This document shows positions 8,034 through 64,000 of a DNA stretch of 64,000 bases, in pieces. Source of the DNA: Chondrosia reniformis (lineage: Eukaryota > Porifera > Demospongiae > Chondrillida > Chondrillidae); assembly GCA_947172415.1 (NCBI GenBank), contig OX359191.1, forward strand, positions 930,001-994,000, written 5' to 3'. The number at the start of each line of letters is the position of its first letter. Within the stretch, counting starts at the first letter, position 1. Under the pieces are notes generated by a model. It saw only the letters and a program-made list of their open reading frames with translations, had not been told where the DNA came from and made no database searches. The position numbers were made by a program, and so were the translations under genes.

Positions 8034-8172
8034 TAGTCCGGCTTGCTAGACCGTCTCTACACCGGCACTTTTGGTCGCTTGTTCTCGTTCCCAGTGCACT
8101 TCCGCCGCCATTTTAATGTGAAACAAAATGGTGGACAGATGGGAACGAGACTAGGTCTAGCAAGCCAGGCTA
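8034..8172. mobile_element. Fold-back (MITE-like) palindromic element
   Basis: A 139-bp imperfect palindrome. The ends pair as TAGTCCGGCTTGCTAGACC and the complement of GGTCTAGCAAGCCAGGCTA, 17 of 19 bases matching. Inner arms also pair: GTTCTCGTTCCCA with TGGGAACGAGA, and CCGCCATTTT with AAAATGGTGG. The centre is TAATGTGAAAC. This is the shape of a non-autonomous fold-back DNA transposon. No target-site duplication is certain. It sits 46 bp upstream of the POLD1 ATG and carries two YY1-like cores, so it may be part of the promoter. Confidence 0.75.
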
Positions 8173-8217
8173 CTAAGCTAATTGTCACGTGACATTGGCG
8201 GGAAGCTGCGCTCAAAA
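8173..8217 (+). promoter_or_regulatory. POLD1 proximal promoter/leader with E-box and E2F-type site
   Basis: CACGTG at 8186-8191 is a perfect E-box. TTGGCGGGAA at 8195-8204 matches the E2F consensus, and the same bases include an inverted CCAAT core. E2F control of replication genes is well established, so this is the site expected for S-phase expression. Confidence 0.65.
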
Positions 8218-35776: not shown

Positions 35777-36434
35777 ATAGGTGCGTTCTACTACTATGAT
35801 ACTCCTTGTAAGACACACCAAGTGTTAACTTATGATATCGACAATGATATCAGCTCAAACTTGGTGTCAGCATTCACAGACATGTATGAAACATTTCAAT
35901 GAGAATTTGAAATTTTCATTAATCTTTACATTTGCCCTATCTCTCACCATACATTAATTTGGTATATCAGTATATTAATGTACATTTGGTGCTCTAACTC
36001 TGTGAAATGTAAAGATATGAAGCTCAAACTTGATGGCTACATTCACTGACATGTATGAAACATTTCTAATGAGAATTTGAAATTTTCATAAATCTTTACA
36101 TTTGCCCTATCTCTCACCATACATTAATTTGGTATATCAGTATAATAATGAACATTTGGTGCTCTAACTCTGTCAAATGGAAAGATACGATGATCAAACC
36201 TGGTGTCAACATTCACTGACATGTATGAAACATTTCCAATGAAATTTGAAAATTTCAAAAATCTTTACATTAATTTGCCCTATCTCTCACCATACATTAA
36301 TTTGGTATATCAGTATATTCATGTACATTTGGTGCTCTAGCTCTGTCAAATGGAAAGATATGAAGCTCAAACTTGGTGGCTACATTCACTGACATGTATG
36401 AAACATTTCCAATGAGAATTTGAAATTTTCATTA

Positions 36435-36496
36435 ATCTTTACATTTGCCCTATCTCTCACCATACGTATGGTGAAAGATAGGGCAAATATGAGTGA
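36435..36496. repeat. Palindrome at satellite strand switch (A to B)
   Basis: Centred on CATACGTATG (36461-36470), with roughly 30-bp arms holding two mismatches. Similar switch points lie near 43896, 46765 and 63346 (CCATTCGTATGG), and shortened ones (CTCGTATGATG) near 49449, 51833 and 53335. Confidence 0.85.
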
Positions 36497-36997
36497 ACAT
36501 CAAAATTTGTAAAACTCTTTGGATATGCTTTAAGGATGTCTGTGAATGCTGACAAAAAGTTTCAGCTTCACATCTTTCCAATTGACAGAGTTATTGCAGT
36601 AAATGTACATTAGATTCTTGTATACAAATTTAATGTATGGTGAGAGATAGGGCAAATATGAGTGAACATCAAAATTTGTAAAACTCTTTGGATATGCTTT
36701 AAGGATAGCTGTGAATGCTGACAGCAAGTTTCAGCTTCACATCTTTCCAATTGACAGAGTTATTGCACTAAATGTACATTAGATTCTTTCATACAAATTT
36801 AATGTATGGTGAGAGATAGGGCAAATATGAGTGAACATCAAAATTTGTAAAACTCTTTGGATATGCTTTAAGGATGTCTGTGAATGCTAATACCAAGTTT
36901 CAGCTTCGCATCTTTCCAATTGACAGAGTTATTACACTAAATGTACATTAGATTCTTGTATAGAAATTTAATGTACGGGAGTTTCGTAATAATATAA

Positions 36998-37081
36998 ATG
37001 GCCGACCTAGAGAAGGGAATATTGAAAATACGGTACTTTTATACCTATATCTTAATAGCGAGAACGCTTTTAAGATTTTAA
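36998..37081 (+). other. Small ORF in element E (27 aa)
   Basis: Starts MADLEKGILKI, with a hydrophobic C-terminal half, and is preceded by TATAAATGG. It is identical in the second and third copies and present in the visible part of the fourth. Whether it is translated is unknown. Confidence 0.2.
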
Positions 37082-37147
37082 AACACATGGATATTCACTC
37101 TGTAATACTTGATTGTTTTGAAGTAGTATCTGTCCATATTATAATAT

Positions 37148-37516
37148 ATGGATGTCGCTAAAGTGAAAAATCGCCAATCCGGCAATCGACTGCTAACGAA
37201 ACTCGGAAGGAAAAAAATTGGACCATACCGAACGCTACCATCCACGACGCTCAGAGGCCGGGATCGGTGGTAACGCTCTGCCGAGTTGAGCTTTGGGTGT
37301 CACTTGCGTGAGAAGAACCAGTTCTTCTCGATATGGCCGACTCATATGAATCCTAAGATATCAGATGCCAATCCCACATTACGTGGAACCCCCCCGAAAT
37401 CCGGATTATTGGTGAGCACGTCTCTATGGCACCAACCGATTAGGAGACAGCTTCAGAGTCTAAGCGCTACCAACCTCTATGGGAACCGCAACCACCATAG
37501 AGATGTGTCCAGGTAG
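37148..37516 (+). other. Open frame with one internal stop in element E
   Basis: ATG 37148 opens 41 codons (MDVAKVKNRQSGNRLLTKLG..., strongly basic) to TAA at 37271. The same frame then stays open for another 81 codons to TAG at 37514. The second part includes SFGCHLREKNQFFSIWPTH. The TAA is present in all three full copies. It could be a relic exon, two exons, or chance. No family recognised. Confidence 0.25.
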
Positions 37517-40500
37517 GCCTACTATTATAAGGTTTTATCTTCTATTTAAATAAAGTAATTGCCTATGAAAACGCTTGTGGTTGGCGCATCTTCAATACTT
37601 TAGAATAGGGTATTTTTCGATCTGCAGTAACTCGGGTATCCTTTTTTGAAAGTTTACAAAACGAGCATGATATACTGTATAGCTATATGTGCATACAGCC
37701 AAGAAGTTTCAGCTTCAAATCTTTCCAATTGACAGAGTTATTGCACTAAATGTACATTAGATTCTTGTATACAAATTTAATGTATAGTGAGAGATATATA
37801 GGGCAAATATGAGTGAACATCAAAATTTGCAAAACTCTTTGGATATGCTTTAAGGATGTCTGTGAATGCTAACACCAAGTTTCAGCTTCAAATCTCTCCA
37901 ATTGACAGAGTTATTGCACTAAATGTACATTAGATTCTTGTATACAAATTTAATGTATAGTGAGAGATATATAGGGCAAATATGAGTGAACATCAAAATT
38001 TGTAAAACTCTTTGGTTATGCTTTAAGGATGTCTGTGAATGCTGACAAGAAGTTTCAGCTTCACATCTTTCCAATTGACAGAGTTACAGCACTAAATGTA
38101 CATTAGATTCTTGTATACAAATTTAATGTATGGTGAGAGATAGGACAAATATGAGTGAACATCAAAATTTGCAAAACTCTTTGGATATGCTTTAAGGATG
38201 TCTGTGAATGCTGACAAGAAGTTTCAGCTTCACATCTTTCCAATTTACAGAGTTAATGCACTAAATGTACATTAGATTCTTGTATACAAATTTAATGTAC
38301 GTATGGTGAGAGATAGGGCAAATATGAGTGAACATCAAAATTTGAAAAACTCTTTGGATATGCTTTAAGGATAGCTGTGAATGCTGACAAGAAGTTTCAG
38401 CTTCACATCTTTCCAATTGACAGAGTTATTACACTAAATGTACATTAGATTCTTGTATACAAATTTAATGTATGTACATTAATTTGGTATACCAGTATAA
38501 TAATGAACATTTGGTGCTCTAACTCTGTCAAATGGAAAGATACGATGCTCAAACTTGGTGGCTACATTCACTGACATGTATGAAACATTTCCAATGAGAA
38601 TTCGAAACTTTCAAAAATCTTTACATTTGCCCTATCTCTCACCACACATTAATTTGGTATACCAGTATAATAATGAACATTTGGTGCTCTAACTCTGTCA
38701 AATGGAAAGATATGAAGCTCAAACTTGGAGTCAGCATTCATGGACATGTATGAAACATTTCCAATGAGAATTCGAAACTTTCAAAAATCTTTCCATTTGC
38801 CCTATCTCTCACCATACATTAATTTGGTATACCAGTATATTAATGTACATTTGGTGCTCTAACTCTGTCAAATGGAAAGATATGAAGCTCAAACTTGGTG
38901 GCTACATTCACTGACATGTATGAAACATTTCCAATGAGAATTTGAAATTTTCATAAATCTTTACATTTGCCCTATCTCTCACCATACATTAATTTGGTAT
39001 ATCAGTATATTAATGTACATTTGGTGCAAGCTCAAACTTGATGGCTACATTCACTGACATGCATGAAACATTTCCAATGAGAATTTGAAATTTTCATAAA
39101 TCTTTACATTTGCTCTATCTCTCACCATACATTAATTTGGTATATTAGTATATTAATGTACATTTGGTGCTCTAACTCTGTCAAATGGAAAGATGTGATG
39201 CTCAAACTTGGTGGCTACATTCACTGACATGCATGAAACATTTCCAATGAGAATTTGAAATTTTCATAAATCTTTACATTTGCCCTATCTCTCACCATAC
39301 ATTAATTTGGTATATCAGTATATTAATGTACATTTGGTGCTCTAACTCTGTCAAATGGAAAGATGTGATGCTCAAACTTGGTGTCAACATTCACAGACAT
39401 GTATGAAACATTTCCAATGAGAATTCGAAACTTTCAAAAATCTTTACATTTGCCCTATCTCTCACCATACATTAATTTGGTATATCAGTATATTAATGTA
39501 CATTTGGTGCTCTAACTCTGTCAAATGGAAAGATGTGATGCTCAAACTTGGTGGCTACATTCACTGACATGCATGAAACATTTCCAATGAGAATTTGAAA
39601 TTTTCATAAATCTTTACATTTGCCCTATCTCTCAGCATACATTAATTTGGTATATCAGTATATTAATGTACATTTGGTGCTCTAACTCTGTCAATTGTAA
39701 AGGTATGAAGCTCAAACTTGGAGTCAGCATTCATGGACATGTATGAAACATTTCCAATGAGAATTCGAAACTTTTATAAATCTTTACATTTGCCCTATCT
39801 CTCACCATACATTAATTTGGTATATCAATATATTAATGTACATTTGGTGCTCTAACTCTGTCAAATGAAAAGATATGAAGCTCAAACTTGGTGGCTACAT
39901 TCACTGACATGTATGAAACATTTCCAATGAAAATTTAAAATTTTCATTAATCTTTACATTTGCCCTATCTCTCACCATACATTAATTTGGTATATCAGTA
40001 TATTAATGTACATTTGGTGCTCTAACTCTGCCAAATGGAAAGATATGAAGTTCAAACTTGGTGGCTACATTCACTGACATGTATGAAACATTTCCAATGA
40101 GAATTTGAAATTTTCATAAATCTTTACATTTGCCCTATCTCTCACCATACATCAATTTGGTACATCAGTATATTAATGTACATTTGGTGCTCTAACTCTG
40201 TCAAATGTAAAGGTATGAAGCTCAAACTTGGAGTCAGCATTCATGGACATGTATGAAACATTTCCAATGAGAATTCGAAACTTTCAAAAATCTTTACATT
40301 TGCCCTATCTCTCACCATACATTAATTTGGTATATCAGTATATTAATGTACATTTGGTGCTCTAACTCTGTCAAATGGAAAGATATGAAGCTCAAACTTG
40401 GTGGCTACATTCACTGACATGTATGAAACATTTCCAATGAGAATTTGAAAATTTCATAAATCTTTACATTTGCCCTATCTCTCACCATACATTAATTTGG

Positions 40501-43500
40501 TATATCAGTATATTAATGTACATTTGGTGCTCTAACTCTGTCAAATGGAAAGATGTGATGCTCAAACTTGGTGTCAGCATTCACTGACATGTATGAAACA
40601 TTTCCAATGAGAATTCGAAACTTTCAAAAATCTTTACATTTGCCCTATCTCTCACCATACATTAATTTGGTATATCAGTATATTAATGTACATTTGGTGC
40701 TCTAACTCTGTCAAATGGAAAGATGTGATGCTCAAACTTGGTGGCTACATTCACTGACATGCATGAAACATTTCCAATGAGAATTTGAAATTTTCATAAA
40801 TCTTTACATTTGCCCTATCTCTCACCATACATTAATTTGGTATATCAGTATATTAATGTACATTTGGTGCTCTAACTCTGTCAAATGTAAAGGTATGAAG
40901 CTCAAACTTGGAGTCAGCATTCATGGACATATATGAAACATTTCCAATGAGAATTCGAAACTTTTATAAATCTTTACATTTGCCCTATCTCTCACCATAC
41001 ATTAATTTGGTATATCAGTATATTAATGTACATTTGGTGCTCTAACTCTGTCAAATGAAAAGATATGAAGCTCAAACTTGGTGGCTACATTCACTGACAT
41101 GTATGAAACATTTCCAATGAAAATTTAAAATTTTCATAAATCTTTACATTTGCCCTATCTCTCACCATACATTAATTTGGTATATCAGTATATTAATGTA
41201 CATTTGGTGCTCTAACTCTGCCAAATGGAAAGATATGAAGTTCAAACTTGGTGGCTACATTCACTGACATGTATGAAACATTTCCAATGAGAATTTGAAA
41301 TTTTCATAAATCTTTACATTTGCCCTATCTCTCACCATACATCAATTTGGTACATCAGTATGTTAATGTACATTTGGTGCTCTAACTCTGTCAAATGTAA
41401 AGGTATGAAGCTCAAACTTGGAGTCAGCATTCATGGACATGTATGAAACATTTCCAATGAGAATTCGAAACTTTCAAAAATCTTTACATTTGCCCTATCT
41501 CTCACCATACATTAATTTGGTATATCAGTATATTAATGTACATTTGGTGCTCTAACTCTGTCAAATGGAAAGATATGAAGCTCAAACTTGGTGGCTACAT
41601 TCACTGACATGTATGAAACATTTCCAATGAGAATTTGAAATTTTCATAAATCTTTACATTTGCCCTATCTCTCACCATACATTAATTTGGTATATCAGTA
41701 TATTAATGTACATTTGGTGCTCTAACTCTGTCAAATGTAAAGGTATGAAGCTCAAACTTGGAGTCAGCATTCATGGACATGTAGGAAACATTTCCAATGA
41801 GAATTCGAAACTTTCAAAAATCTTTACATTTGCCCTATCTCTCACCAAACATTAATTTGGTATATCAGTATATTAATGTTCATTTGGTGCTCTAACTCTG
41901 TCAAATGGAAAGATATGAAGTTCAAACTTGGTGGCTACATTCACTGACATGTATGAAACATTTCCAAAGAGAATTTGAAATTTTCATAAATCTTTACATT
42001 TGCCCTATCTCTCACCACACATTAATTTGGTACATCAGTATATTAATGTACATTTGGTGCTCTAACTCTGTCAAATGTAAAGGTATGAAGCTCAAACTTG
42101 GAGTCAGCATTCATGGACATGTATGAAACATTTCCAATGAGAATTCGAAACTTTCAAAAATCTTTACATTTGCCCTATCTCTCACCATACATTAATTTGG
42201 TATATCAGTATATTAATGTACATTTGATGCTCTAACTCTGTCAAATGGAAAGATATGAAGCTCAAACTTGGTGGCTACATTCACTGACATGTATGAAACA
42301 TTTCCAATGAGAATTTGAAATTTTCATAAATCTTTACATTTGCCCTATCTCTCACCATACATTAATTTGGTATATCAGTATATTAATGTACATTTGGTGC
42401 TCTAACTCTGTCAAATGTAAAGGTATGAAGCTCAAACTTGGAGTCAGCATTCATGGACATGTATGAAACATTTCCAATGAGAATTCGAAACTTTCAAAAA
42501 TCTTTACATTTGCCCTATCTCTCACCATACATTAATTTGGTATATCAGTATATTAATGTACATTTGGTGCTCTAACTCTGTCAAATGGAAAGATATGAAG
42601 CTCAAACTTGGTGGCTACATTCACTGACATGTATGAAACATTTCCAATGAGACTTTGAAATTTTCATAAATCTTTACATTTGCCCTATCTCTCAGCATAC
42701 ATTAATTTGGTATATCAGTATATTAATGTACATTTGGTGCTCTAACTCTGTCAAATGTAAAGGTATGAAGCTCAAACTTGGTGCCAGCATTCACAGACAT
42801 GTACGAAACATTTCCAATGAGAATTGGAAACTTTCAAAAATCTTTACATTTGCCCTATCTCTCACCATACATTAATTTGGTATTCCAGTATATTAATGTA
42901 CATTTGGTGCTCTAACTCTGTCAAATGGAAAGATATGAAGCTCAAACTTGCTGGCTACATTCACTGCCATGTATGAAACATTTCCAATGAGAATTTGAAA
43001 TTTTCATTAATCTTTACATTTGCCCTATCTCTCACCATACATTAATTTGGTATATCAGTATATTAATGTACATTTGGTGCTCTAACTCTGTCAAATGTAA
43101 AGGTATGAAGCTCAAACTTGGAGTCAGCATTCATGGACATGTATAAAACATTTCCAATGAGAATTCGAAACTTTCAAAAATCTTTACATTTGCCCTATCT
43201 CTCACCATACATTAATTTGGTATATCAGTATATTAATGTACATTTGGTGCTCTAATTCTGTCAAATGGAAAGGTATGAAGCTCAAACTTGCTGTCAGCAT
43301 TCACAGACATGTATGAAACATTTCCAATGAGAATTTGAAATTTTCATAAATCTTTACATTTGCCCTATATCTCACCAAACATTAATTTGGTATTCTAGTA
43401 TATTAATGTACATTTGGTGCTCTAACTCTGTCAAATGGAAAGATATGAAGCTTAAACTTGGTGGCTACATTCACTGACATGTATGAAACATTTCCAATGA

Positions 43501-44410
43501 GAATTTGAAATTTTCATAAATCTTTACATTTGCCCTATCTCTCACCATACATTAATTTGGTATTCTAGTATATTAATGTACATTTGGTGCTCTAACTCTG
43601 TCAAATGTAAAGGTATGAAGCTCAAACTTGGAGTCAGCATTCATGGACATGTATGAAACATTTCCAATGAAAATTTGAAATTTTCATTAATCTTTACATT
43701 TGCCCTATCTCTCACCATACATTAATTTGGTATATCAGTATATTAATGTACATTTGGTGCTCTAACTCTGTGAAATGTAAAGGTATGAGGCTCAAACTTG
43801 GTGTCAGCATTCAAAGACATGTATGAAACATTTCCAATGAGAATTCAAAACTTTCAAAATTCTTCACATTAATATTTGCCCTATCACTCACCATTCGTAT
43901 GGTGAAAGATAGAGCAAATATGAGTGAACATCAAAATTTGTAAAACTCTTTGGATATGCTTTAAGGATGTCTGTGAATGCTAACACCAAGTTTCAGCTTC
44001 ACATCTTTTCAATTGACAGAGTTATTGCACTAAATGTACATTAGATTCATGTATACAAATTTAATGTATGGTGAGAGATAGGGCAAATATGAGTGAACAT
44101 CAAAATTTGTAAAACTCTTTGGATATGCTTTAAGGATAGCTGTGAATGCTGACAGCAAGTTTCAGCTTCACATCTTTCCAATTGACAGAGTTATTGCAGT
44201 AAATGTACATTAGATTCATGTATACAAATTTAATGTACGTATTGTGAGAGATAGGGCAAATATGAGTGAACATCAAAATTTGTAAAACTCTTTGGATATG
44301 CTTTAAGGATGTCTGTGAATGCTAACACCAAGTTTCAGCTTCGCATCTTTCCAATTGACAGAGTTATTACACTTATTGTACATTAGATTCTTGTATAGAA
44401 ATTTAATGTA

Positions 44411-45135
44411 CGGGAGTTTCGTAATAATATAAATGGCCGACCTAGAGAAGGGAATATTGAAAATACGGTACTTTTATACCTATATCTTAATAGCGAGAAC
44501 GCTTTTAAGATTTTAAAACACATGGATATTCACTCTGTAATACTTGATTGTTTTGAAGTAGTATCTGTCCATATTATAATATATGGATGTCGCTAAAGTG
44601 AAAAATCGCCAATCCGGCAATCGACTGCTAACGAAACTCCGAAGGAAAAAAATTGGACCATACCGAACGCTACCATCCACGACGCTCAGAGGCCGGGATC
44701 GGTGGTAACGCTCTGCCGAGTTGAGCTTTGGGTGTCACTTGCGTGAGAAGAACCAGTTCTTCTCGATATGGCCGACTCATATGAATCCTAAGATATCAGA
44801 TGCCAATCCCACATTACGTGGAACCCCCCCGAAATCCGGATTATTGGTGAGCACGTCTCTATGGCACCAACCGATTAGGAGACAGCTTCAGAGTCTAAGC
44901 GCTACCAACCTCTATGGGAACCGCAACCACCATAGAGATGTGTCCAGGTAGGCCTACTATTATAAGGTTTTATCTTCTATTTAAATAAAGTAATTGCCTA
45001 TGAAAACGCTTGTGGTTGGCGCATCTTCAATACTTTAGAATAGGGTATTTTTCGATCTGCAGTAACTCGGGTATCCTTTTTTGAAAGTTTACAAAACGAG
45101 CAGGATATACTGTATAGCTATATGTGCATACAGCC
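44411..45135 (+). repeat. Element E, copy 2
   Basis: Same length and ends as copy 1. I noticed two substitutions relative to it: CTCCGAAGG for CTCGGAAGG (Gly to Arg in the MDVAK frame) and GAGCAGGAT for GAGCATGAT. The satellite on its right side differs slightly from that beside copies 1 and 3. Confidence 0.9.
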
Positions 45136-47278
45136 AAGAAGTTTCAGCTTCAAATCTTTCCAATTGACAGAGTTATTGCACTAAATGTACATTAGATTCT
45201 TGTATACAAATTTAATGTACGTATTGTGAGATATATAGGGCAAATATGAGTGAACATCAAAATTTGCAAAACTCTTTGGATATGCTTTAAGGATGTCTGT
45301 GAATGCTAACACCAAGTTTCAGCTTCAAATCTCTCCAATTGACAGAGTTATTGCACTAAATGTACATTAGATTCTTGTATAAAAATTTAATCTATAGTGA
45401 GAGATATATAGGGCAAATATGAGTGAACATCAAAATTTGTAAAACTCTTTGGATATGCTTTAAGGATGTCTGTGATTGCTGACAAGAAGTTTCAGCTTCA
45501 CATCTTTCCAATTGACAGAGTTACAGCACTAAATGTACATTAGATTCTTGTATACAAATTTAATGTATTGTGAGAGATAGGGCAAATATGAGTGAACATC
45601 AAAATTTGCAAAACTCTTTGGATATGCTTTATGCATGTCTGTGAATGCTGTCAAGAAGTTTCAGCTTCACATCTTCCCAATTTACAGAGTTATTGCACTA
45701 AATGTACATTAGATTCTTGTATACAAATTTAATGTACGTATGGTGAGAGATAGGGCAAATATGAGTGAACATCAAAATTTGAAAAACTCTTTGGATATGC
45801 TTTAAGGATAGCTGTGAATGCTGACAAGAAGTTTCAGCTTCACATCTTTCCAATTGACAGAGTTATTACACTGAATGTACATTAGATTCTTATATACAAA
45901 TTAAATGTATGTACATTAATTTGGTATACTGGTATATTAATGTACATTTGGTGCTCTAACTCTGTCAAATGGAAAGATATGAAGCACAAACTTGGTTGTT
46001 ATATTCACTGACATGTATGAAACATTTCCAATGAGAATTTGAAATTTTCATAAATCTTTACATTTGCCCTATCTCTCACTATACATTAATTTGGTATATC
46101 AGTATATTAATGTACATTTGGTGCTCTAACTCTGTCAAATGTAAAGGTATGAAGCTCAAACTTGGTGTCAGCATTCAAAGACTTGTATGAAACATTTCCA
46201 ATGAGAATTTGAAATTTTCATAAATCTTTACATTTGCCCTATCTCTCACCATACATTAATTTGGTATATCAGTATATTAATGTACATTTGGTGCTCTAAC
46301 TCTGTCAAATGTAAAGGTATGAAGCTCAAACTTGGTGTCAGCATTCAAACACATGTATGAAACATTTCCAATGAAAATTTAAAATTTTCATAAATCTTTA
46401 CATTTGCCCTATCTCTCAGCATACATTAATTTGGTATATCAGTATATTAATGTACATTTGGTGCTCTAACTCTGTCAAATGGAAAGATATGAAGCTCAAA
46501 CTTGGTGGCTACATTCACTGACATGTATGAAACATTTCCAATGAGAATTTGAAATTTTCATAAATCTTTACATTTGCCCTATCTCTCACCATACATTAAT
46601 TTGGTATATCAGTATATTAATGTACATTTGGTGCTCTAACTCTGTCAAATGTAAAGGTATGAAGCTCAAACTTGGTGTCAGCATTCAAAGACATGTATGA
46701 AACATTTCCAATGAGAATTCAAAACTTTCAAAAATCTTCACATTTGCCCTATCTCTCACCATTCGTATGGTGAAAGATAGAGCAAATATGAGTGAACATC
46801 AAAATTTGCAAAACTCTTTGGATATGCTTTAAGGATGTCTGTGAATGCTAACACCAAGTTTCAGCTTCAAATCTCTCCAATTGACAGAGTTATTGCACTA
46901 AATGTACATTAGATTCATGTATACAAATTTAATGTATGGTGAGAGATAGGGCAAATATGAGTGAACATCAAAATTTGCAAAACTCTTTGGATATGCTTTA
47001 AGGATAGCTGTGAATGCTGACAGCAAGTTTCAGCTTCACATCTTTCCAATTGACAGAGTTATTGCAGTAAATGTACATTAGATTCTTGTATACAAATTTA
47101 ATGTACGTATTGTGAGAGATAGGGCAAATATGAGTGAACATTAAAATTTGTAAAACTCTTTGGATATGCTTTAAAGATGTCTGTGAATGCTAATACCAAG
47201 TTTCAGCTTCACATCTTTCCAATTGACAGAGTTATTACACTAAATGTACATTAGATTCTTGTATAGAAATTTAATGTA

Positions 47279-48003
47279 CGGGAGTTTCGTAATAATATAA
47301 ATGGCCGACCTAGAGAAGGGAATATTGAAAATACGGTACTTTTATACCTATATCTTAATAGCGAGAACGCTTTTAAGATTTTAAAACACATGGATATTCA
47401 CTCTGTAATACTTGATTGTTTTGAAGTAGTATCTGTCCATATTATAATATATGGATGTCGCTAAAGTGAAAAATCGCCAATCCGGCAATCGACTGCTAAC
47501 GAAACTCGGAAGGAAAAAAATTGGACCATACCGAACGCTACCATCCACGACGCTCAGAGGCCGGGATCGGTGGTAACGCTCTGCCGAGTTGAGCTTTGGG
47601 TGTCACTTGCGTGAGAAGAACCAGTTCTTCTCGATATGGCCGACTCATATGAATCCTAAGATATCAGATGCCAATCCCACATTACGTGGAACCCCCCCGA
47701 AATCCGGATTATTGGTGAGCACGTCTCTATGGCACCAACCGATTAGGAGACAGCTTCAGAGTCTAAGCGCTACCAACCTCTATGGGAACCGCAACCACCA
47801 TAGAGATGTGTCCAGGTAGGCCTACTATTATAAGGTTTTATCTTCTATTTAAATAAAGTAATTGCCTATGAAAACGCTTGTGGTTGGCGCATCTTCAATA
47901 CTTTAGAATAGGGTATTTTTCGATCTGCAGTAACTCGGGTATCCTTTTTTGAAAGTTTACAAAACGAGCATGATATACTGTATAGCTATATGTGCATACA
48001 GCC
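47279..48003 (+). repeat. Element E, copy 3
   Basis: Same length and ends as copy 1, and I found no difference from it by eye. The flanking B monomers on the right are also nearly the same as those of copy 1. Confidence 0.9.
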
Positions 48004-51000
48004 AAGAAGTTTCAGCTTCAAATCTTTCCAATTGACAGAGTTATTGCACTAAATGTACATTAGATTCTTGTATACAAATTTAATGTATAGTGAGAGATAT
48101 ATAGGGCAAATATGAGTGAACATCAAAATTTGCAAAACTCTTTGGATATGCTTTAAGGATGTCTGTGAATGCTAACACCAAGTTTCAGCTTCAAATCTCT
48201 CCAATTGACAGAGTTATTGCACTAAATGTACATTAGATTCTTGTATACAAATTTAATGTATAGTGAGAGATATATAGGGCAAATATGAGTGAACATCAAA
48301 ATTTGTAAAACTCTTTGGTTATGCTTTAAGGATGTCTGTGAATGCTGACAAGAAGTTTCAGCTTCACATCTTTCCAATTGACAGAGTTACAGCACTAAAT
48401 GTACATTAGATTCTTGTATACAAATTTAATGTATGGTGAGAGATAGGACAAATATGAGTGAACATCAAAATTTGCAAAACTCTTTGGATATGCTTTAAGG
48501 ATGTCTGTGAATGCTGACAAGAAGTTTCAGCTTCACATCTTTCCAATTGACAGAGTTATTACACTGAATGTACATTAGATTCTTGTATACAAATTTAATG
48601 TACATACATTAATTTGGTATACTGGTATATTAATGTACATTTGGTGCTCTAACTCTGTCAAATGGAAAGATATGAAGCACAAACTTGGTTGTTATATTCA
48701 CTGACATGTATGAAACATTTCCAATGAGAATTCGAAACTTTCATAAATCTTTACATTTGCCCTATCTCTCACCACACATTAATTTGGTATACCAGTGTAA
48801 TAATGAACATTTGGTGCTCTAACTCTGTCAAATGTAAAGATATGAAGCTCAAACTTGGAATCAGCATTCATGGACATGTATGAAACATTTCCAATTAGAA
48901 TTCGAAACTTTCAAAAATCTTTACATTTGCCCTATCTCTCACCACACATTAATTTGTTATATCAGTATATTAATGTACATTTGGTGCTCTAACTCTGTCA
49001 AATGTAAAGGTATGAAGCTCAAACTTGGTGTCAGCATTCAAAAACATGTATGAAACATTTCCAATGAGAATTTGAAATTTTCATAAATCTTTACATTTGC
49101 CCTATCTCTCACCATACATTAATTTGGTATATCAGTATATTAATGTACATTTGGTGCTCTAACTCTGTCAAATGGAAAGATATGAAGCTCAAACTTGGTG
49201 GCTACATTCACTGACATGTATGAAACATTTCCAATGAGAATTTTAAATTTTCATATATCTTTACATTTGCCCTATCTCTCACCATACATTAATTTGGTAT
49301 ATCAGTATATTAATGTACATTTGGTGCTCTAACTCTGTCAAATGTAAAGGTATGAAGCTCAAACTTGGTGTCAGCATTCAAAGGCATGTATGAAACATTT
49401 CCAATGAGAATTCGAAACTTTCAAAAATCTTTACATTTGCCCTATCTCGTATGATGAAAGATAGAGCAAATATGAGTGAACATCAAAATTTGCAAAACTC
49501 TTTGGATATGCTTTAAGGATGTCTGTGAATGCTAACACCAAGTTTCAGCTTCACATCTTTCCAATTGACAGAGTTATTGCAGTAAATGTACATTAGATTC
49601 ATGTATACAAATTTAATGTATGGTGAGAGATAGGGCAAATATGAGTGAACATCAAAATTTGCAAAACTCTTTGGATATGCTTTAAGGATAGCTGTGAATG
49701 CTGACAGCAAGTTTCAGCTTCACATCTTTCCAATTGACAGAGTTATTGCAGTAAATGTACATTAGATTCTTGTATACAAATTTAATGTACGTATTGTGAG
49801 AGATAGGGCAAATATGAGTGAACATCAAAATTTGTAAAACTCTTTGGATATGCTTTAAGGATGTCTGTGAATGCTAACACCAAGTTTCAGCTTCAAATCT
49901 CTCCAATTGACAGAGTTATTGCACTAAATGTACATTAGATTCTTGTATACAAATTTAATGTATAGTGAGAGATATATAGGGCAAATATGAGTGAACATCA
50001 AAATTTGTAAAACTCTTTGGTTATGCTTTAAGGATGTCTGTGAATGCTGACAAGAAGTTTCAGCTTCACATCTTTCCAATTGACAGAGTTACAGCACTAA
50101 ATGTACATTAGATTCTTGTATACAAATTTAATGTATGGTGAGAGATAGGACAAATATGAGTGAACATCAAAATTTGCAAAACTCTTTGGATATGCTTTAA
50201 GGATGTCTGTGAATGCTGACAAGAAGTTTCAGCTTCACATCTTTCCAATTGACAGAGTTATTACACTGAATGTACATTAGATTCTTGTATACAAATTTAA
50301 TGTACATACATTAATTTGGTATACTGGTATATTAATGTACATTTGGTGCTCTAACTCTGTCAAATGGAAAGATATGAAGCACAAACTTGGTTGTTATATT
50401 CACTGACATGTATGAAACATTTCCAATGAGAATTTGAAATTTTCATAAATCTTTACATTTGCCCTATCTCTCACCATACATTAATTTGGTATACCAGTAT
50501 AATAATGAACATTTGGTGCTCTTACTCTGTCAAATGGAAAGATACGATGCTCAAACTTGGTGTCAACATTCACAGACATGTATGAAACATTGCCAATGAG
50601 AATTGGAAACTTTCAAAAATCTTTACATTTGCCCTATCTCTCACCATACATTAATTTGGTATTCCAGTATAATAATGAACATTTGGTGCTCTTACTCTGT
50701 CAAATGGAAAGATACGATGCTCAAACTTGGTGTCAACATTCACAGACATGTATGAAACATTTCCAATGAGAATTTGAAACTTTCAAAAATCTTTACATTT
50801 GCCCTATCTCTCACCATACATTAATTTGGTATATCAGTATAATAATGAACATTTGGTGCTCTAACTCTGTCAAATGGAAAGATACGATGCTCAAACTTGG
50901 TGTCAACATTCACAGACATGTATGAAACATTTCCAATGAGAATTCGAAACTTTCATAAATCTTTACATTTGCCCTATCTCTCACCACACATTAATTTGGT

Positions 51001-51832
51001 ATACCAGTGTAATAATGAACATTTGGTGCTCTAACTCTGTCAAATGAAAAGATATGAAGCTCAAACTTGGTGGCTACATTCACAGACATGTATGAAACAT
51101 TTCCAATGAGAATTCGAAACTTTCATAAATCTTTACATTTGCCCTATCTCTCACCACACATTAATTTGGTATACCAGTGTAATAATGAACATTTGGTGCT
51201 CTAACTCTGTCAAATGTAAAGATATGAAGCTCAAACTTGGAATCAGCATTCATGGACATGTATGAAACATTTCCAATGAGAATTCGAAACTTTCAAAAAT
51301 CTTTACATTTGCCCTATCTCTCACCACACATTAATTTGTTATATCAGTATATTAATGTACATTTGGTGCTCTAACTCTGTCAAATGTAAAGGTATGAAGC
51401 TCAAACTTGGTGTCAGCATTCAAAAACATGTATGAAACATTTCCAATGAGAATTTGAAATTTTCATAAATCTTTACATTTGCCCTATCTCTCACCATACA
51501 TTAATTTGGTATATCAGTATATTAATGTACATTTGGTGCTCTAACTCTGTCAAATGGAAAGATATGAAGCTCAAACTTGGTGGCTACATTCACTGACATG
51601 TATGAAACATTTCCAATGAGAATTTTAAATTTTCATATATCTTTACATTTGCCCTATCTCTCACCATACATTAATTTGGTATATCAGTATATTAATGTAC
51701 ATTTGGTGCTCTAACTCTGTCAAATGTAAAGGTATGAAGCTCAAACTTGGTGTCAGCATTCAAAGACATGTATGAAACATTTCCAATGAGAATTGGAAAC
51801 TTTCAAAAATCTTCACATTTGCCCTATCTCGT

Positions 51833-54400
51833 ATGATGAAAGATAGAGCAAATATGAGTGAACATCAAAATTTGCAAAACTCTTTGGATATGCTTTAAGG
51901 ATGTCTGTGAATGCTAACACCAAGTTTCAGCTTCACATCTTTCCAATTGACAGAGTTATTGCAGTAAATGTACATTAGATTCATGTATACAAATTTAATG
52001 TATGGTGAGAGATAGGGCAAATATGAGTGAACATCAAAATTTGTAAAACTCTTTGGATATGCTTTAAGGATAGCTGTGAATGCTGACAGCAAGTTTCAGC
52101 TTCACATCTTTCCAATTGACAGAGTTATTGCAGTAAATGTACATTAGATTCTTGTATACAAATTTAATGTACGTATTGTGAGAGATAGGGCAAATATGAG
52201 TGAACATCAAAATTTGTAAAACTCTTTGGATATGCTTTAAGGATGTCTGTGAATGCTAATACCAAGTTTCAGCTTCACATCTTTCCAATTGACAGAGTTA
52301 CAGCACTAAATGTACATTAGATTCTTGTATACAAATTTAATGTATGGTGAGAGATAGGACAAATATGAGTGAACATCAAAATTTGCAAAACTCTTTGGAT
52401 ATGCTTTAAGGATGTCTCTGAATGCTGACAAGAAGTTTCAGCTTCACATCTTTCCAATTGACACAGTTATTACACTGAATGTACATTAGATTCTTGTATA
52501 CAAATTTAATGTACATACATTAATTTGGTATACTGGTATATTAATGTACATTTGGTGCTCTAACTCTGTCAAATGGAAAGATATGAAGCACAAACTTGGT
52601 TGTTATATTCACTGACATGTATGAAACATTTCCAATGAGAATTTGAAACTTTCAAAAATCTTTACATTTGCCCTATCTCTCACCATACATTACTTCGGTA
52701 TATCAGTATATTAATGTACATTTGGTGCAAGCTCAAACTTGGTGGCTACATTCACTGACATGTATGAAACATTTCCAATGAGAATTTGAAATTTTCATAA
52801 ATCTTTACATTTGCCCTATCTCTCACCATACATTAATTTTGTATTCCAGTATATGAATGTACATTTGGTGCTCTAATTCTGTCAACTGTAAAGGTATGAA
52901 GCTCAAACTTGGTGTCAGCATTCAAAGACATGTATGAAACATTTCCAATGAGAATTCGAAACTTTCAAAAATCTTTACATTTGCCCTATCTCTCACCATA
53001 CATTAATTTGGTATATCAGTATATTAATGTACATTTGGTGCTCTAACTCTGTCAAATGGAAAGATATGAAGCTCAAACTTGGTGGCTACATTCACTGACA
53101 TGTATGAAACATTTCCAATGAGAATTTTAAATTTTCATATATCTTTACATTTGCCCTATCTCTCACCATACATTAATTTGGTATATCAGTATATTAATGT
53201 ACATTTGGTGCTCTAACTCTGTCAAATGTAAAGGTATGAAGCTCAAACTTGGTGTCAGCATTCAAAGACATGTATGAAACATTTCCAATGAGAATTGGAA
53301 ACTTTCAAAAATCTTCACATTTGCCCTATCTCGTATGATGAAAGATAGAGCAAATATGAGTGAACATCAAAATTTGCAAAACTCTTTGGATATGCTTTAA
53401 GGATGTCTGTGAATGCTAACACCAAGTTTCAGCTTCACATCTTTCCAATTGACAGAGTTATTGCAGTAAATGTACATTAGATTCATGTATACAAATTTAA
53501 TGTATGGTGAGAGATAGGGCAAATATGAGTGAACATCAAAATTTGTAAAACTCTTTGGATATGCTTTAAGGATAGCTGTGAATGCTGACAGCAAGTTTCA
53601 GCTTCACATCTTTCCAATTGACAGAGTTATTGCAGTAAATGTACATTAGATTCTTGTATACAAATTTAATGTACGTATTGTGAGAGATAGGGCAAATATG
53701 AGTGAACATCAAAATTTGTAAAACTCTTTGGATATGCTTTAAGGATGTCTGTGAATGCTAATACCAAGTTTCAGCTTCACATCTTTCCAATTGACAGAGT
53801 TACAGCACTAAATGTACATTAGATTCTTGTATACAAATTTAATGTATGGTGAGAGATAGGACAAATATGAGTGAACATCAAAATTTGCAAAACTCTTTGG
53901 ATATGCTTTAAGGATGTCTCTGAATGCTGACAAGAAGTTTCAGCTTCACATCTTTCCAATTGACACAGTTATTACACTGAATGTACATTAGATTCTTGTA
54001 TACAAATTTAATGTACATACATTAATTTGGTATACTGGTATATTAATGTACATTTGGTGCTCTAACTCTGTCAAATGGAAAGATATGAAGCACAAACTTG
54101 GTTGTTATATTCACTGACATGTATGAAACATTTCCAATGAGAATTTGAAACTTTCAAAAATCTTTACATTTGCCCTATCTCTCACCATACATTACTTCGG
54201 TATATCAGTATATTAATGTACATTTGGTGCAAGCTCAAACTTGGTGGCTACATTCACTGACATGTATGAAACATTTCCAATGAGAATTTGAAATTTTCAT
54301 AAATCTTTACATTTGCCCTATCTCTCACCATACATTAATTTTGTATTCCAGTATATGAATGTACATTTGGTGCTCTAATTCTGTCAACTGTAAAGGTATG
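51833..54400 (+). repeat. 1,502-bp higher-order repeat (B block plus A block)
   Basis: The segment starting at the A-to-B switch near 51833 recurs from 53335 with the same order of variant monomers, including an odd monomer lacking TCTAACTCTGTCAAATGGAAAGATA. The match holds for at least 1.05 kb. Confidence 0.85.
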
Positions 54401-56380
54401 AAGCTCAAACTTGGTGTCAGCATTCAAAAACATGTATGAAACATTTCCAATGAGAATTTGAAATTTTCATAAATCTTTACATTTGCCCTATCTCTCACCA
54501 TACATTAATTTGGTATATCAGTATATTAATGTACATTTGGTGCTCTAACTCTGTCAAATGGAAAGATATGTAGCTCAAACTTGGTGGCTACATTCACTGA
54601 CATGTATGAAACATTTCCAATGAGAATTTAAAATTTTCATAAATCTTTACATTTGCCCTATCTCTCACCATACATTAATTTGGTATATCAGTATAATAAT
54701 GAACATTTGGTGCTCTAACTCTGTCAAATGTAAAGGTATGAAGCTCAAACTTGGAGTCAGCATTCATGGACATGTATGAAACATTTCCAATGAGAATTCG
54801 AAACTTTCAAAAATCTTTACATTTGCCCTATCTCTCACCATACATTAATTTGGTATATCAGTATATTAATGTACATTTGGTGCTCTAACTCTGTCAAATG
54901 TAAAGCTATGAAGCTCAAACTTTGTGTCAGCATTCAAAAACATGTATGAAACATTTCCAATGAGAATTCGAAACTTTCAAAAATCTTTACATTTGCCCTA
55001 TCTCTCACCATACATTAATTTTGTATTCCAGTATATGAATGTACATTTGGTGCTCTAATTCTGTCAACTGTAAAGGTATGAAGCTCAAACTTGGTGTCAG
55101 CATTCAAAAACATGTATGAAACATTTCCAATGAGAATTTGAAATTTTCATAAATCTTTACATTTGCCCTATCTCTCACCATACATTAATTGGGTATACCA
55201 GTATATTAATGTACATTTGGTGCTCTAACTCTGTCAAATGGAAAGATATGTAGCTCAAACTTGGTGGCTACATTCACTGACATGTATGAAACATTTCCAA
55301 TGAGAATTTAAAATTTTCATAAATCTTTACATTTGCCCTATCTCTCAGCATACATTAATTTGGTATATCAGTATAATAATGAACATTTGGTGCTCTAACT
55401 CTGTCAAATGTAAAGGTATGAAGCTCAAACTTGGAGTCAGCATTCATGGACATGTATGAAACATTTCCAATGAGAATTCGAAACTTTCAAAAATCTTTAC
55501 ATTTGCCCTATCTCTCACCATACATTAATTTGGTATATCAGTATATTAATGTACATTTGGTGCTCTAACTCTGTCAAATGTAAAGCTATGAAGCTCAAAC
55601 TTTGTGTCAGCATTCAAAAACATGTATGAAACATTTCCAATGAGAATTCGAAACTTTCAAAAATCTTTACATTTGCCCTATCTCTCACCATACATTAATT
55701 TTGTATTCCAGTATATGAATGTACATTTGGTGCTCTAATTCTGTCAACTGTAAAGGTATGAAGCTCAAACTTGGTGTCAGCATTCAAAAACATGTATGAA
55801 ACATTTCCAATGAGAATTTGAAATTTTCATAAATCTTTACATTTGCCCTATCTCTCACCATACATTAATTTGGTATACCAGTATATTAATGTACATTTGG
55901 TGCTCTAACTCTGTCAAATGGAAAGATATGTAGCCCAAACTTGGTGGCTACATTCACTGACATGTATGAAACATTTCCAATGAGAATTTAAAATTTTCAT
56001 AAATCTTTACATTTGTCCTATCTCTCAGCATACATTAATTTGGTATATCAATATAATAATGAACATTTGGTGCTCTAACTCTGTCAAATGTAAAGGTATG
56101 AAGCTCAAACTTGGAGTCAGCATTCATGGACATGTATGAAACATTTCCAATGAGAATTCAAAACTTTCAAAAATCTTTACATTTGCCCTATCTCTCACCA
56201 TACATTAATTTGGTATATCAGTATATTAATGTACATTTGGTGCTCTAATTCTGTCAAATGGAAAGGTATGAAGCTCAAACTTGCTGTCAGCATTCACAGA
56301 CATGTATGAAACATTTCCAATGAGAATTTGAAATTTTCATAAATCTTTACATTTGCCCTATCTCTCACCATACATTAATT
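54341..56380 (+). repeat. 680-bp four-monomer higher-order repeat, three copies
   Basis: The diagnostic TTGTATTCCAGTATATGAAT occurs at 54341, 55021 and 55701, exactly 680 bp apart. Monomers two to four repeat in the same order, except the last monomer of the third copy. Confidence 0.85.
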
Positions 56381-59300
56381 TGGTATTCTAGTATATTAAT
56401 GTACATTTGGTGCTCTAACTCTGTCAAATGGAAAGATATGAAGCTCAAACTTGGTGGCTACATTCACTGACATGTATGAAACATTTCCAATGAGAATTCG
56501 AAATTTTCATAAATCTTTACATTTGCCCTATCTCTCACCATACATTAATTTGGTATATCAGTATATTAATGTACATTTGGTGCTCTAACTCTGTCAAATG
56601 TAAAGGTATGAAGCTCAAACTTGGAGTCAGCATTCAAAGACTTGTATGAAACATTTCCAATGAAAATTTGAAATTTTCATTAATCTTTACATTTGCCCTA
56701 TCTCTCACCATACATTAATTTGGTATATCAGTATATTAATGTACATTTGGTGCTCTAACTCTGTCAAATGTAAAGGTATGAAGCTCAAACTTGGAGTCAG
56801 CATTCATGAACATGTATGAAACATTTCCAATGAAAATTTGAAATTTTCATTAATCTTTACATTTGCCCTATCTCTCACCATACATTAATTTGGTATATCA
56901 GTATATTAATGTACATTTGGTGCTCTAACTCTGTCAAATGTAAAGGTATGAAGCTCAAATTTGGTGGCTACATTCACTGACATGTATGAAACATTTCCAA
57001 TGAGAATTTGAAATTTTCATAAATCTTTACATTTGCCCTATCTCTCACCATACATTAATTTGGTATATCAGTATAATAATGAACATTTGGTGATCTAACT
57101 CTGTCAAATGGAAAGATACGATGCTCAAACTTGGTGGCTACGTTCACTGACATTTATGAAACATTTCAATGAGAATTTGAAATTTTCATAAATCTTTACA
57201 TTTGCCCTATCTCTCACCATACATTAATTTGGTATATCAGTATAATAATGTACATTTGGTGCTCTAACTCTGTCAAATGTAAAGGTATGAAGCTCAAACT
57301 TGGTGTCAGCATTCAAAGACATGTATGAAACATTTCCAATGAGAATTCAAAACTTTCAAAAATCTTTACATTTGCCCTATCTCTCACCATACATTAATTT
57401 GGTATATCAGTATATTAATGTACATTTGGTGCTCTAACTCTGTCAGATGGAAAGATATGAAGCTCAAACTTGGTGGCTACATTCACTGACATGTATGAAA
57501 CATTTCCAATGAGAATTTGAAATTTTCATAAATCTTTACATTTGCCCTATCTCTCACCATACATTAATTTGGTATATCAGTATATTAATGTACATTTGGT
57601 GCTCTAACTCTGTCAAATGTAAAGGTATGAAGCTCAAACTTGGAGTCAGCATTCATGAACATGTATGAAACATTTCCAATGAAAATGTGAAATTTTCATT
57701 AATCTTTACATTTGCCCTATCTCTCACCATACATTAATTTGGTATATCAGTATATTAATGTACATTTGGTGCTCTAACTCTGTCAAATGTATACGTAAAG
57801 GTATGAAGCTCAAATTTGGTGGCTACATTCACTGACATGTATGAAACATTTCCAATGAGAATTTGAAATTTTCATAAATCTTTACATTTGCCCTATCTCT
57901 CACCATACATTAATTTGGTATATCAGTATAATAATGAACATTTGGTGATATAACTCTGTCAAATGGAAAGATACGATGCTCAAACTTGGTGGCTACGTTC
58001 ACTGACATTTATAAAACATTTCAATGAGAATTTGAAATTTTCATAAATCTTTACATTTGCCTTATCTCTCACCATACATTAATTTGGTATATCAGTATAA
58101 TAATGTACATTTGGTGCTCTAACTCTGTCAAATGTAAAGGTATGAAGCTCAAACTTGGTGTCAGCATTCAAAGACATGTATGAAACATTTCCAATGAGAA
58201 TTCAAAACTTTCAAAAATCTTTACATTTGCCCTATCTCTCACCATACATTAATTTTGCATACCGGTTTTTAATGTACATTTTTGCTCTAACTCTGTCAAA
58301 TGAAAAGATATGAAGCTCAAACTTGGTGGCTACATTCACTGACATGTATGAAACATTTCCAATGAGTATTTGAAATTTTCATAAATCTTTACATTTGCCC
58401 TATCTCTCACCATACATTAATTTGGTATTCTAGTATATTAATGTACATTTGGTGCTCTAACTCTGTCAAATGGAAAGATATGAAGCTCAAACTTGGTGGC
58501 TACATTCACTGACATGTATGAAACATTTCCAATAAGATTTCGAAATTTTCATAAATCTTTACATTTGCCCTATCTCTCACCATACATTAATTTGGTATAT
58601 CAGTATATTAATGTACATTTGGTGCTCTAACTCTGTCAAATGTAAAGGTATGAAGCTCAAACTTGGAGTCAGCATTCAAAGACTTGTATGAAACATTTCC
58701 AATGAAAATTTGAAATTTTCATTAATCTTTACATTTGCCCTATCTCTCACCATACATTAATTTGGTATATCAGTATATTAATGTACATTTGGTGCTCTAA
58801 CTCTGTCAAATGTAAAGGTATGAAGCTCAAACTTGGAGTCAGCATTCATGAACATGTATGAAACATTTCCAATGAAAATTTGAAATTTTCATTAATCTTT
58901 ACATTTGCCCTATCTCTCACCATACATTAATTTGGTATATCAGTATATTAATGTACATTTGGTGCTCTAACTCTGTCAAATGTAAAGGTATGAAGCTCAA
59001 ATTTGGTGGCTACATTCACTGACATGTATGAAACATTTCCAATGAGAATTTGAAATTTTCATAAATCTTTACATTTGCCCTATCTCTCACCATACATTAA
59101 TTTGGTATATCAGTATAATAATGAACATTTGGTGATCTAACTCTGTCAAATGGAAAGATACGATGCTCAAACTTGGTGGCTACGTTCACTGACATTTATG
59201 AAACATTTCAATGAGAATTTGAAATTTTCATAAATCTTTACATTTGCCCTATCTCTCACCATACATTAATTTGGTATATCAGTATAATAATGTACATTTG

Positions 59301-60464
59301 GTGCTCTAACTCTGTCAAATGTAAAGGTATGAAGCTCAAACTTGGTGTCAGCATTCAAAGACATGTATGAAACATTTCCAATGAGAATTCAAAACTTTCA
59401 AAAATCTTTACATTTGCCCTATCTCTCACCATACATTAATTTGGTATATCAGTATATTAATGTACATTTGGTGCTCTAACTCTGTCAGATGGAAAGATAT
59501 GAAGCTCAAACTTGGTGGCTACATTCACTGACATGTATGAAACATTTCCAATGAGAATTTGAAATTTTCATAAATCTTTACATTTGCCCTATCTCTCACC
59601 ATACATTAATTTGGTATATCAGTATATTAATGTACATTTGGTGCTCTAACTCTGTCAAATGTAAAGGTATGAAGCTCAAACTTGGAGTCAGCATTCATGA
59701 ACATGTATGAAACATTTCCAATGAAAATGTGAAATTTTCATTAATCTTTACATTTGCCCTATCTCTCACCATACATTAATTTGGTATATCAGTATATTAA
59801 TGTACATTTGGTGCTCTAACTCTGTCAAATGTATACGTAAAGGTATGAAGCTCAAATTTGGTGGCTACATTCACTGACATGTATGAAACATTTCCAATGA
59901 GAATTTGAAATTTTCATAAATCTTTACATTTGCCCTATCTCTCACCATACATTAATTTGGTATATCAGTATAATAATGAACATTTGGTGATATAACTCTG
60001 TCAAATGGAAAGATACGATGCTCAAACTTGGTGGCTACGTTCACTGACATTTATGAAACATTTCAATGAGAATTTGAAATTTTCATAAATCTTTACATTT
60101 GCCTTATCTCTCACCATACATTAATTTGGTATATCAGTATAATAATGTACATTTGGTGCTCTAACTCTGTCAAATGTAAAGGTATGAAGCTCAAACTTGG
60201 TGTCAGCATTCAAAGACATGTATGAAACATTTCCAATGAGAATTCAAAACTTTCAAAAATCTTTACATTTGCCCTATCTCTCACCATACATTAATTTTGC
60301 ATACCGGTTTTTAATGTACATTTTTGCTCTAACTCTGTCAAATGAAAAGATATGAAGCTCAAACTTGGTGGCTACATTCACTGACATGTATGAAACATTT
60401 CCAATGAGTATTTGAAATTTTCATAAATCTTTACATTTGCCCTATCTCTCACCATACATTAATT
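56381..60464 (+). repeat. 2,042-bp twelve-monomer higher-order repeat, two copies
   Basis: Rare landmarks recur 2,042 bp apart: TGGTATTCTA at 56381 and 58423, GTATACGTAA at 57789 and 59831, ACCGGTTTTT at 58261 and 60303. Very few differences lie between the copies, so the duplication is recent. Confidence 0.9.
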
Positions 60465-63400: not shown

Positions 63401-63856
63401 TGGATATGCTTTAAGGATAGCTGTGAATGCTGACAGCAAGTTTCAGCTTCACATCTTTCCAATTGACAGAGTTATTGCAGTAAATGTATATTAGATTCTT
63501 GTATACAAATTTAATGTATGGTGAGAGATAGGGCAAATATGAGTGAACATCAAAATTTGTAAAACTCTTTGGATATGCTTTAAGGATAGCTGTGAATGCT
63601 GACAGCAAGTTTCAGCTTCACATCTTTCCAATTGACAGAGTTATTGCACTAAATGTACATTAGATTCATGTATACAAATTTAATGTATGGTGAGAGATAG
63701 GGCAAATATGAGTGAACATCAAAATTTGTAAAACTCTTTGGATATGCTTTAAGGATAGCTGTGAATGCTGACAGCAAGTTTCAGCTTCACATCTTTCCAA
63801 TTGACAGAGTTATTGCACTAAATGTACATTAGATTCATGTATAGAAATTTAATGTA

Positions 63857-64000
63857 CGGGAGTTTCGTAATAATATAAATGGCCGACCTAGAGAAGGGAA
63901 TATTGAAAATACGGTACTTTTATACCTATATCTTAATAGCGAGAACGCTTTTAAGATTTTAAAACACATGGATATTCACTCTGTAATACTTGATTGTTTT
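63857..64000 (+). repeat. Element E, copy 4, cut by window end
   Basis: First 144 bp of the 725-bp element, matching copy 1 through the small ORF. It again follows three B monomers in an inverted block. Confidence 0.85.

What the first reader, a model, noticed from the sequence alone, without database searches (positions are those of the whole stretch)
36976..48003. A 725-bp non-satellite element kept nearly identical inside a diverged satellite array
Three full copies (36976, 44411, 47279) have exactly the same length and differ at about two noticed positions, while satellite monomers around them differ much more. The element is GC-richer, always lies inside inverted (B) blocks in the same orientation, and always replaces the same ~97 bp of a monomer. 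It has no TIRs, target duplications or known domain. Either it spreads with its flanking monomers by unequal exchange or conversion, or it is under constraint.
Basis: partly seen in the sequence, partly recalled or inferred. Interest (0 to 1): 0.85.

Follow-up and report, generated by a model that had tools for sequence, protein, structure and literature searches.

The report
Hidden RNA gene inside sponge satellite
The odd block in this repeat array carries what looks like a roughly 313-nucleotide RNA gene of unknown family with a small-nuclear-RNA type promoter, present in hundreds of nearly identical copies across a sponge genome while the DNA around it has drifted; its expression has not been shown.

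Summary
In detail: three 725-bp copies (copies 1 and 3 identical, copy 2 differing at two positions) lie in a 170-bp satellite array, and a fourth runs off the window end. Inside the window, near-identity is partly plain local duplication. Genome-wide it is not: a 34-mer from the element occurs at 871 places, seen on at least 11 chromosomes, in a genome whose size matches the sponge Chondrosia reniformis. Conservation is confined to a sub-block. In 30 copies the 313-bp core plus 59 bp of promoter have 0 variable columns of 372, the rest of the element 29 of 353; adjacent satellite differs by 4-6%. Across diverged array families the core differs by 1%, its upstream spacer by 24%, its downstream flank by 8-22%. 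The core fits a gene on the MINUS strand: a proximal sequence element like those of this genome's U1 genes, a TATA-like box, a start about 59 nt downstream and a T7 stop. The RNA folds into three domains; Rfam gives no match. Best reading: an undescribed, probably Pol III-transcribed RNA gene riding in a dispersed satellite repeat, kept uniform by constraint plus homogenisation. Expression, polymerase and function are not shown.

The parts
36976..37700 (+). 725-bp element, copy 1
37211..37523 (-). predicted 313-nt RNA gene in copy 1 (minus strand), from the conserved-block start to the end of the T7 run
   Evidence: 0 variable columns of 313 in 30 copies; coordinates; conservation edges
37565..37583 (-). 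proximal sequence element (CAACCACAAGCGTTTTCAT), U1-type, copy 1
   Evidence: matrix from this genome's seven U1 genes: score 21.2 against a maximum of 13.7 in 123,218 background positions of the window
37543..37552 (-). TATA-like box (TATTTAAATA), copy 1, at about the spacing of TTTATAA after the PSE in four of seven U1 genes
37211..37217 (-). T7 run, putative Pol III terminator, copy 1
   Evidence: pairwise difference 1% before it and 18% in the next 25 bases (8% without the array-edge copy)
44411..45135 (+). 725-bp element, copy 2 (two differences)
44646..44958 (-). predicted RNA gene, copy 2
45000..45018 (-). PSE, copy 2
44978..44987 (-). TATA-like box, copy 2
47279..48003 (+). 725-bp element, copy 3 (identical to copy 1)
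47514..47826 (-). predicted RNA gene, copy 3
47868..47886 (-). PSE, copy 3
47846..47855 (-). TATA-like box, copy 3
63857..64000 (+). first 144 bp of a fourth element, cut by the window end (its RNA gene lies outside)
35852..63853 (.). host satellite array: alternating blocks of 170-bp A monomers and inverted, diverged 169-173-bp B monomers

Best explanation
The element is the gene-bearing segment of a dispersed satellite higher-order repeat. On the minus strand it encodes a structured RNA of about 313 nt with a snRNA-type external promoter (PSE and TATA-like box) and an oligo-T stop, most likely transcribed by RNA polymerase III. Array copies multiply locally by unequal exchange together with their flanking monomers (supported by shared flanks). 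Arrays have been seeded at many sites by DNA-level duplication, since promoter and non-transcribed flanks travel with the gene (supported by the copies examined). The transcribed part stays nearly identical because of purifying selection on the RNA combined with concerted evolution, as for 5S rRNA genes (inferred). Expression, the polymerase used and what the RNA does are inferred or unknown.
For: Conservation block: over nine copies from diverged arrays the gene differs by 1.0% per pair, the PSE by 7.5%, the spacer between PSE and start by 24%, and the 50 bases after the T run by 18-22% (0.7%, 7.9%, 24% and 8-12% without the array-edge copy). In 30 copies gene plus promoter have 0 of 372 variable columns against 29 of 353 in the rest of the element. 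Promoter: the minus strand carries the PSE shared by all seven U1 genes found in this genome, where it lies 56-57 nt before the first base; here it lies 59 nt before the conserved block. It scores 21 or more in each of L001-L038. T6 or T7 closes all 12 aligned genes. The minus-strand fold has 107 pairs in three domains spanning the transcript; 7 of 7 substitutions outside the array-edge copy are unpaired or pair-keeping on that strand (chance 0.047; one of the seven lies at a deletion junction), while 3 of 7 break the plus-strand fold. 871 places genome-wide, 0 for the reversed control pattern.
Against: No transcript data. The 3' edge is softer than the 5' edge: without the array-edge copy the first 25 bases after the T run differ by only 8%, so the block does not end abruptly there. 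The T run was a condition for choosing rows (L035, split by an insertion, failed it). Folding energy is not exceptional and is, if anything, more unusual on the other strand (z -1.4 and -1.7 on the RNA strand, -1.9 on the plus strand). No compensatory double change was found, so covariation proves nothing. The PSE motif is not exclusive: in the 80 kb of L031-L038 it also scores 23.0 at a hammerhead locus (L036), 24.1 at an uncharacterised place (L038) and 13-15 at four others. Neither U6 match has a PSE of this type at score 12 or more, so the choice of Pol III rests mainly on the T run. Single copies are broken (L035 insertion, L036 start-region deletion), so not every copy is needed.
Confidence: 0.77

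Rival explanations
1. Plain segmental duplication: the element is inert filler copied with its flanking monomers, and is uniform only because the copies are young.
For: Inside the window the close pairs share about 500-545 bp of near-identical satellite.
Against: In 30 genome-wide copies the core does not vary while adjacent satellite and the element's own ends do; in diverged array families the core differs by 1% and its neighbours by 8-24%.
Confidence: 0.08
2. Selfish RNA: the transcript serves the repeat, not the host, for example by RNA- or cDNA-templated conversion that rewrites the transcribed part of each copy.
For: Homogeneity stops at the predicted start, with a 24% different spacer directly beside it, and falls after the T run; the copy number is high.
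Against: No conversion tract or reverse transcriptase link was looked for; purifying selection predicts the same edges.
Confidence: 0.15
3. The RNA is a known host RNA (RNase P, RNase MRP, 7SK, SRP or telomerase RNA) too diverged for Rfam, massively amplified.
For: Size, PSE and T run fit that class (class features recalled).
Against: No Rfam match even at E up to 10 for one gene copy; no six-base stretch of the CCCTAA repeat in either strand of one copy. The direct test, finding the ordinary gene elsewhere in the genome, was asked for MRP only and never answered.
Confidence: 0.1
4. A non-autonomous transposable element (MITE, SINE or Helitron-like) lodged in a satellite.
For: Hundreds of dispersed copies.
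Against: No terminal inverted repeats or target duplications at the shared junction (by eye); no A/B box and no tRNA in the window copy; promoter and flanks are co-inherited and all eight isolated sites fetched lie in satellite. Helitron ends were not searched for.
Confidence: 0.06

Closest known systems
5S rRNA gene families (tandem and dispersed; general pattern recalled)
   Same: Multicopy RNA gene with near-identical coding part and diverging spacers; Pol III-like T stop.
   Different: Different RNA; external PSE promoter instead of internal boxes; the 47 scored 5S genes of this genome all lie on C14.
PSE/TATA (type 3) Pol III genes: U6, 7SK, RNase P and MRP RNA (class recalled)
   Same: External promoter order PSE, TATA-like box, start; T-run end; about 300 nt, like 7SK, P and MRP.
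   Different: Hundreds of copies inside satellite arrays; no Rfam match.
snaR and RNU2 arrays of primates (recalled, not searched)
   Same: Small-RNA genes inside tandem repeats with concerted evolution.
   Different: Those are at one or a few loci; here many sites per chromosome, with a 170-bp satellite as carrier.
Metazoan hammerhead retrozymes (PMC7229834; start of abstract in a listing and three passages seen)
   Same: Small structured RNAs from high-copy genomic repeats.
   Different: No hammerhead core or Rfam ribozyme in the element.

Membership tests
snRNA-type (PSE-driven) RNA gene | PSE of the species' own type upstream of the start | tested here: met
   score 21.2 against background maximum 13.7 in the window; 21 or more in each of L001-L038
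snRNA-type (PSE-driven) RNA gene | TATA-like box at fixed distance for Pol III | tested here: inconclusive
   TATTTAAATA near the right spacing, but four of seven U1 genes also carry TTTATAA there, so it does not discriminate
snRNA-type (PSE-driven) RNA gene | Oligo-T termination at the 3' end | tested here: met
   T6-T7 in all 12 rows of A1; rows were chosen with a T run, L035 being the one left out
snRNA-type (PSE-driven) RNA gene | A discrete transcript is made | not testable with these tools
   no RNA data held
5S rRNA | match to RF00001 | tested here: not met
   no match in the element; 47 scored 5S genes all on C14
U1 snRNA | match to RF00003 | tested here: not met
   no match in the window or element; seven U1 genes found at other places
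tRNA-derived SINE | internal A and B boxes or tRNA-like head | tested here: not met
   (window copy)
Hammerhead retrozyme | hammerhead core | tested here: not met
RNase P / MRP / SRP / 7SK RNA | match to the Rfam family | tested here: not met
   no match at E up to 10 for the gene in L033
RNase P / MRP / SRP / 7SK RNA | ordinary gene present elsewhere in the genome | not tested
   the RF00030 search did not complete (first, last); RF00009, RF00017 and RF00100 were never sent
Satellite higher-order repeat | tandem monomers with an ordered larger unit | tested here: met

The most novel reading that the evidence does not exclude
A new family of ~313-nt snRNA-like RNA in sponges, encoded by hundreds of promoter-bearing genes carried by a satellite on most chromosomes, whose transcribed part alone is kept uniform genome-wide, possibly through an RNA-guided or RNA-templated process, with a role in the chromatin or spread of the satellite that carries it.
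Probability: 0.28. Interest if true: 0.9.

Novelty: new variant of a known kind. Interest (0 to 1): 0.7.

Why it matters
It turns an unexplained satellite insert into a testable RNA gene. If transcribed, a satellite in an early-branching animal carries its own snRNA-type genes in hundreds of copies, giving a natural system to separate selection from homogenisation: one transcribed block and its untranscribed flanks, replicated hundreds of times. It would also add a probably new, perhaps abundant structured RNA to animals.

Tried and rejected
Plus-strand RNA: its fold is broken by 3 of 7 substitutions and no PSE is found on that strand (best plus score 2.4). Protein coding: longest stop-to-stop frame 80 aa; the three longest frames give Pfam best E 0.11, below cut-off. 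Pol II-type 3' signal: a stretch shared downstream of four of the seven U1 genes is not seen after the element (by eye). Known RNA. 5S. Telomerase template for TTAGGG: none; chromosome tips were asked for but not answered, so the species' telomere repeat is unchecked. Outside copies: an exact 22-mer gave 0 places in genome contigs and 0 in viral contigs, which are not animal collections. First guess at the organism was Ciona, dropped when the sizes fitted Chondrosia. Literature: sponge with satellite DNA, centromer and Porifera gave 0 papers; satellite DNA with proximal sequence element, RNA polymerase III and tandem gave 0; U2 snRNA gene with satellite DNA, snRNA and embedded gave 0,240 papers held two of four terms and Chondrosia did not occur in the six listed. 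Searches were seen as listings only, apart from PMC7229834. In the genome note PMC12181767 (abstract and passages seen) 'satellite' and 'centromer' occur 0 times in the main text.

That figure rested on about seven columns; one search gives 18-22% over 50 bases, and 8-12% without the array-edge copy. The identical flank of copies 1 and 3 is 545 bp, not about 590. I lowered the main confidence from 0.80 to 0.77 and the novel case from 0.30 to 0.28 for the softer 3' edge, and raised plain duplication from 0.07 to 0.08.

Rows left out: L035 (gene split by an insertion) and the stub L032c (no gene) were not used. One search's 39 rows include win1, which is the same place as L002, so 38 places. Selection biases: L001-L030 are 30 of the 40 scored of 946 candidates, chosen by likeness to the query; L031-L038 are 8 of the 20 regions first asked for, chosen from 100 listed places that match a 34-mer inside the gene exactly, so conservation of that 34-mer is built in. 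The list shows 100 of 871 places; I do not know how many of the rest are exact.
Full report
Where it is. The window is contig C3:930001-994000 of a 117,379,552-base genome with 15 contigs.

Observation. Three 725-bp copies are present as described: copies 1 and 3 are identical and copy 2 differs from each at two positions; a fourth leaves the window at its end. The array is made of A monomers and inverted, diverged B monomers in alternating blocks, and each of the four elements follows three B monomers. Within the window, copies 1 and 3 share 545 bp of identical right flank and copies 2 and 3 about 500 bp of 96-100% left flank. Local unequal exchange therefore explains much of the local identity.

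Genome-wide copies. A similarity search scored 40 of 946 candidates; all 40 match over nearly the whole element at 96-100%. A 34-mer from inside the core, with up to 3 mismatches, occurs at 871 places (439 and 432 on the two strands) against 0 for the reversed control; the 100 places listed all have 0 mismatches. Places named lie on 11 contigs (C1-C8, C11, C12, C14). The 53 places listed on C1 form 26 groups when linked at 10 kb and 18 at 30 kb, so this is not one site per chromosome.

Conservation is limited to a sub-block. Among L001-L030 the RNA gene (element 236-548) has 0 of 313 variable columns and the 59 bp upstream 0 of 59, against 18 of 235 and 11 of 118 in the two ends of the element; mean pairwise differences are 0, 0, 1.8% and 1.2%, and 4.5% and 5.6% in the adjacent 170 bp of satellite on the two sides (substitutions only; Fisher p = 5e-10 for 0 of 372 against 29 of 353). 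Eight isolated sites on C1 and C2 (L031-L038) lie in related but diverged satellites (pieces at about 71-93% to the window monomers). With nine copies from the window and these sites, 25-base steps from 37226 to 37500 agree at 0.925-1.000, the steps at the two edges at 0.86-0.88, and steps further out at 0.38-0.79 with gaps counted as differences. A fresh alignment of the nine (gaps set aside) gives: PSE 7.5%, spacer to the start 24%, gene 1.0%, the next two 25-base steps after the T run 18% and 22%, then 23% and 30%. One of the nine, L032:2412-2727, sits at an array edge with unrelated DNA after its T run; without it the gene is at 0.7% and the steps after the T run are at 8%, 12%, 11% and 24%. 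So the 5' edge is sharp and the 3' edge is a real but softer drop. The selection biases of these sets are stated under Tried and rejected.

The gene. I searched this genome for U6, U1 and 5S genes. All seven U1 genes found share AACCACAA followed by a T-rich stretch, starting 56-57 nt before their first base. A weight matrix from those seven scores 21.2 at one place on the element's minus strand, 2.4 at best on the plus strand, and at most 13.7 in 123,218 other positions of the window. It scores 21 or more in each of L001-L038. The motif lies 59 nt before the first conserved base (37582 to 37523), with a TATA-like box about where four of seven U1 genes have TTTATAA. The block ends in T6-T7 in all 12 aligned rows. 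Promoter-like, start and stop signals thus fit the conserved block, on one strand. The motif is not exclusive: in L031-L038 it also scores 23.0 near a hammerhead ribozyme, 24.1 at an uncharacterised place and 13-15 at four more. The better U6 gene has TTTATAA at -30 but no PSE of this type at score 12 or more, so polymerase III is inferred mainly from the T run.

The RNA. The transcript folds into three domains with 107 pairs. The energy is not exceptional (z -1.7 for L033; -1.4 for the window copy and -1.9 for its opposite strand). Of seven distinct substitutions outside the array-edge copy, all are unpaired or keep a pair on the minus strand (chance 0.047), while three break pairs on the plus strand; one of the seven lies at the junction of the L036 deletion and may be an alignment effect. 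The edge copy has four pair-breaking changes. There is no compensatory change, so the structure is plausible, not proven. Rfam finds nothing at gathering scores in the window, in L031-L038 apart from the hammerhead, or in 12 of L001-L030; two sub-threshold hits near the element lie outside the gene (ssnA, PCA3_2); the gene alone gives none at E up to 10. No A or B box, hammerhead core or TTAGGG template was found in the window copy, and no tRNA.

How it most likely works. Supported by the sequence: DNA-level multiplication, because promoter, flanks and satellite travel with the gene; local exchange; unequal conservation that fits a predicted start and stop; some broken copies (a 4.3-kb insertion in L035, a 13-bp deletion at the start region in L036). 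Inferred: transcription, use of Pol III, and purifying selection with homogenisation. A more daring alternative is that the RNA itself guides homogenisation, which would explain why the spacer directly beside the start drifts; selection alone explains it as well.

Limits. The genome server stopped answering from then on, so the searches for ordinary MRP, P, 7SK and SRP genes, the exact-copy count, an unbiased set of copies and the telomere check were not done. No other sponge could be searched, and no RNA data were available.

Noticed in passing
L036 (G000:C1:6565301-6575300), 2279-2550: A type I hammerhead ribozyme (Rfam 34.6 bits, 2350-2394) lies downstream of another U1-type PSE (score 23.0) with TTTATTA about 27 nt after it, and is followed by a T5 run: it may be a separate PSE-driven ribozyme gene close to the satellite array.
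   Followed up: partly
L035 (G000:C1:9233801-9243800), 5102-9447: A 4.3-kb insertion splits one copy of the RNA gene; it has inverted ends of about 24 bp and a 12-bp duplication of target sequence, and no stop-to-stop frame of 120 aa or more: probably a non-autonomous DNA transposon.
   Followed up: partly
L038 (G000:C2:96301-106300), about 2786-2804, minus strand: A further strong PSE-like site (score 24.1) with no identified gene behind it.
   Followed up: no
L031 3996-4162: A degenerate, internally deleted piece of the element in the opposite orientation to the intact copy of the same locus.
   Followed up: no
window 51831-54834: A tandem duplication of 1502 bp inside the array (1488 of 1502 positions identical); its B blocks, like the one at 49449-50301, carry no element.
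   Followed up: partly
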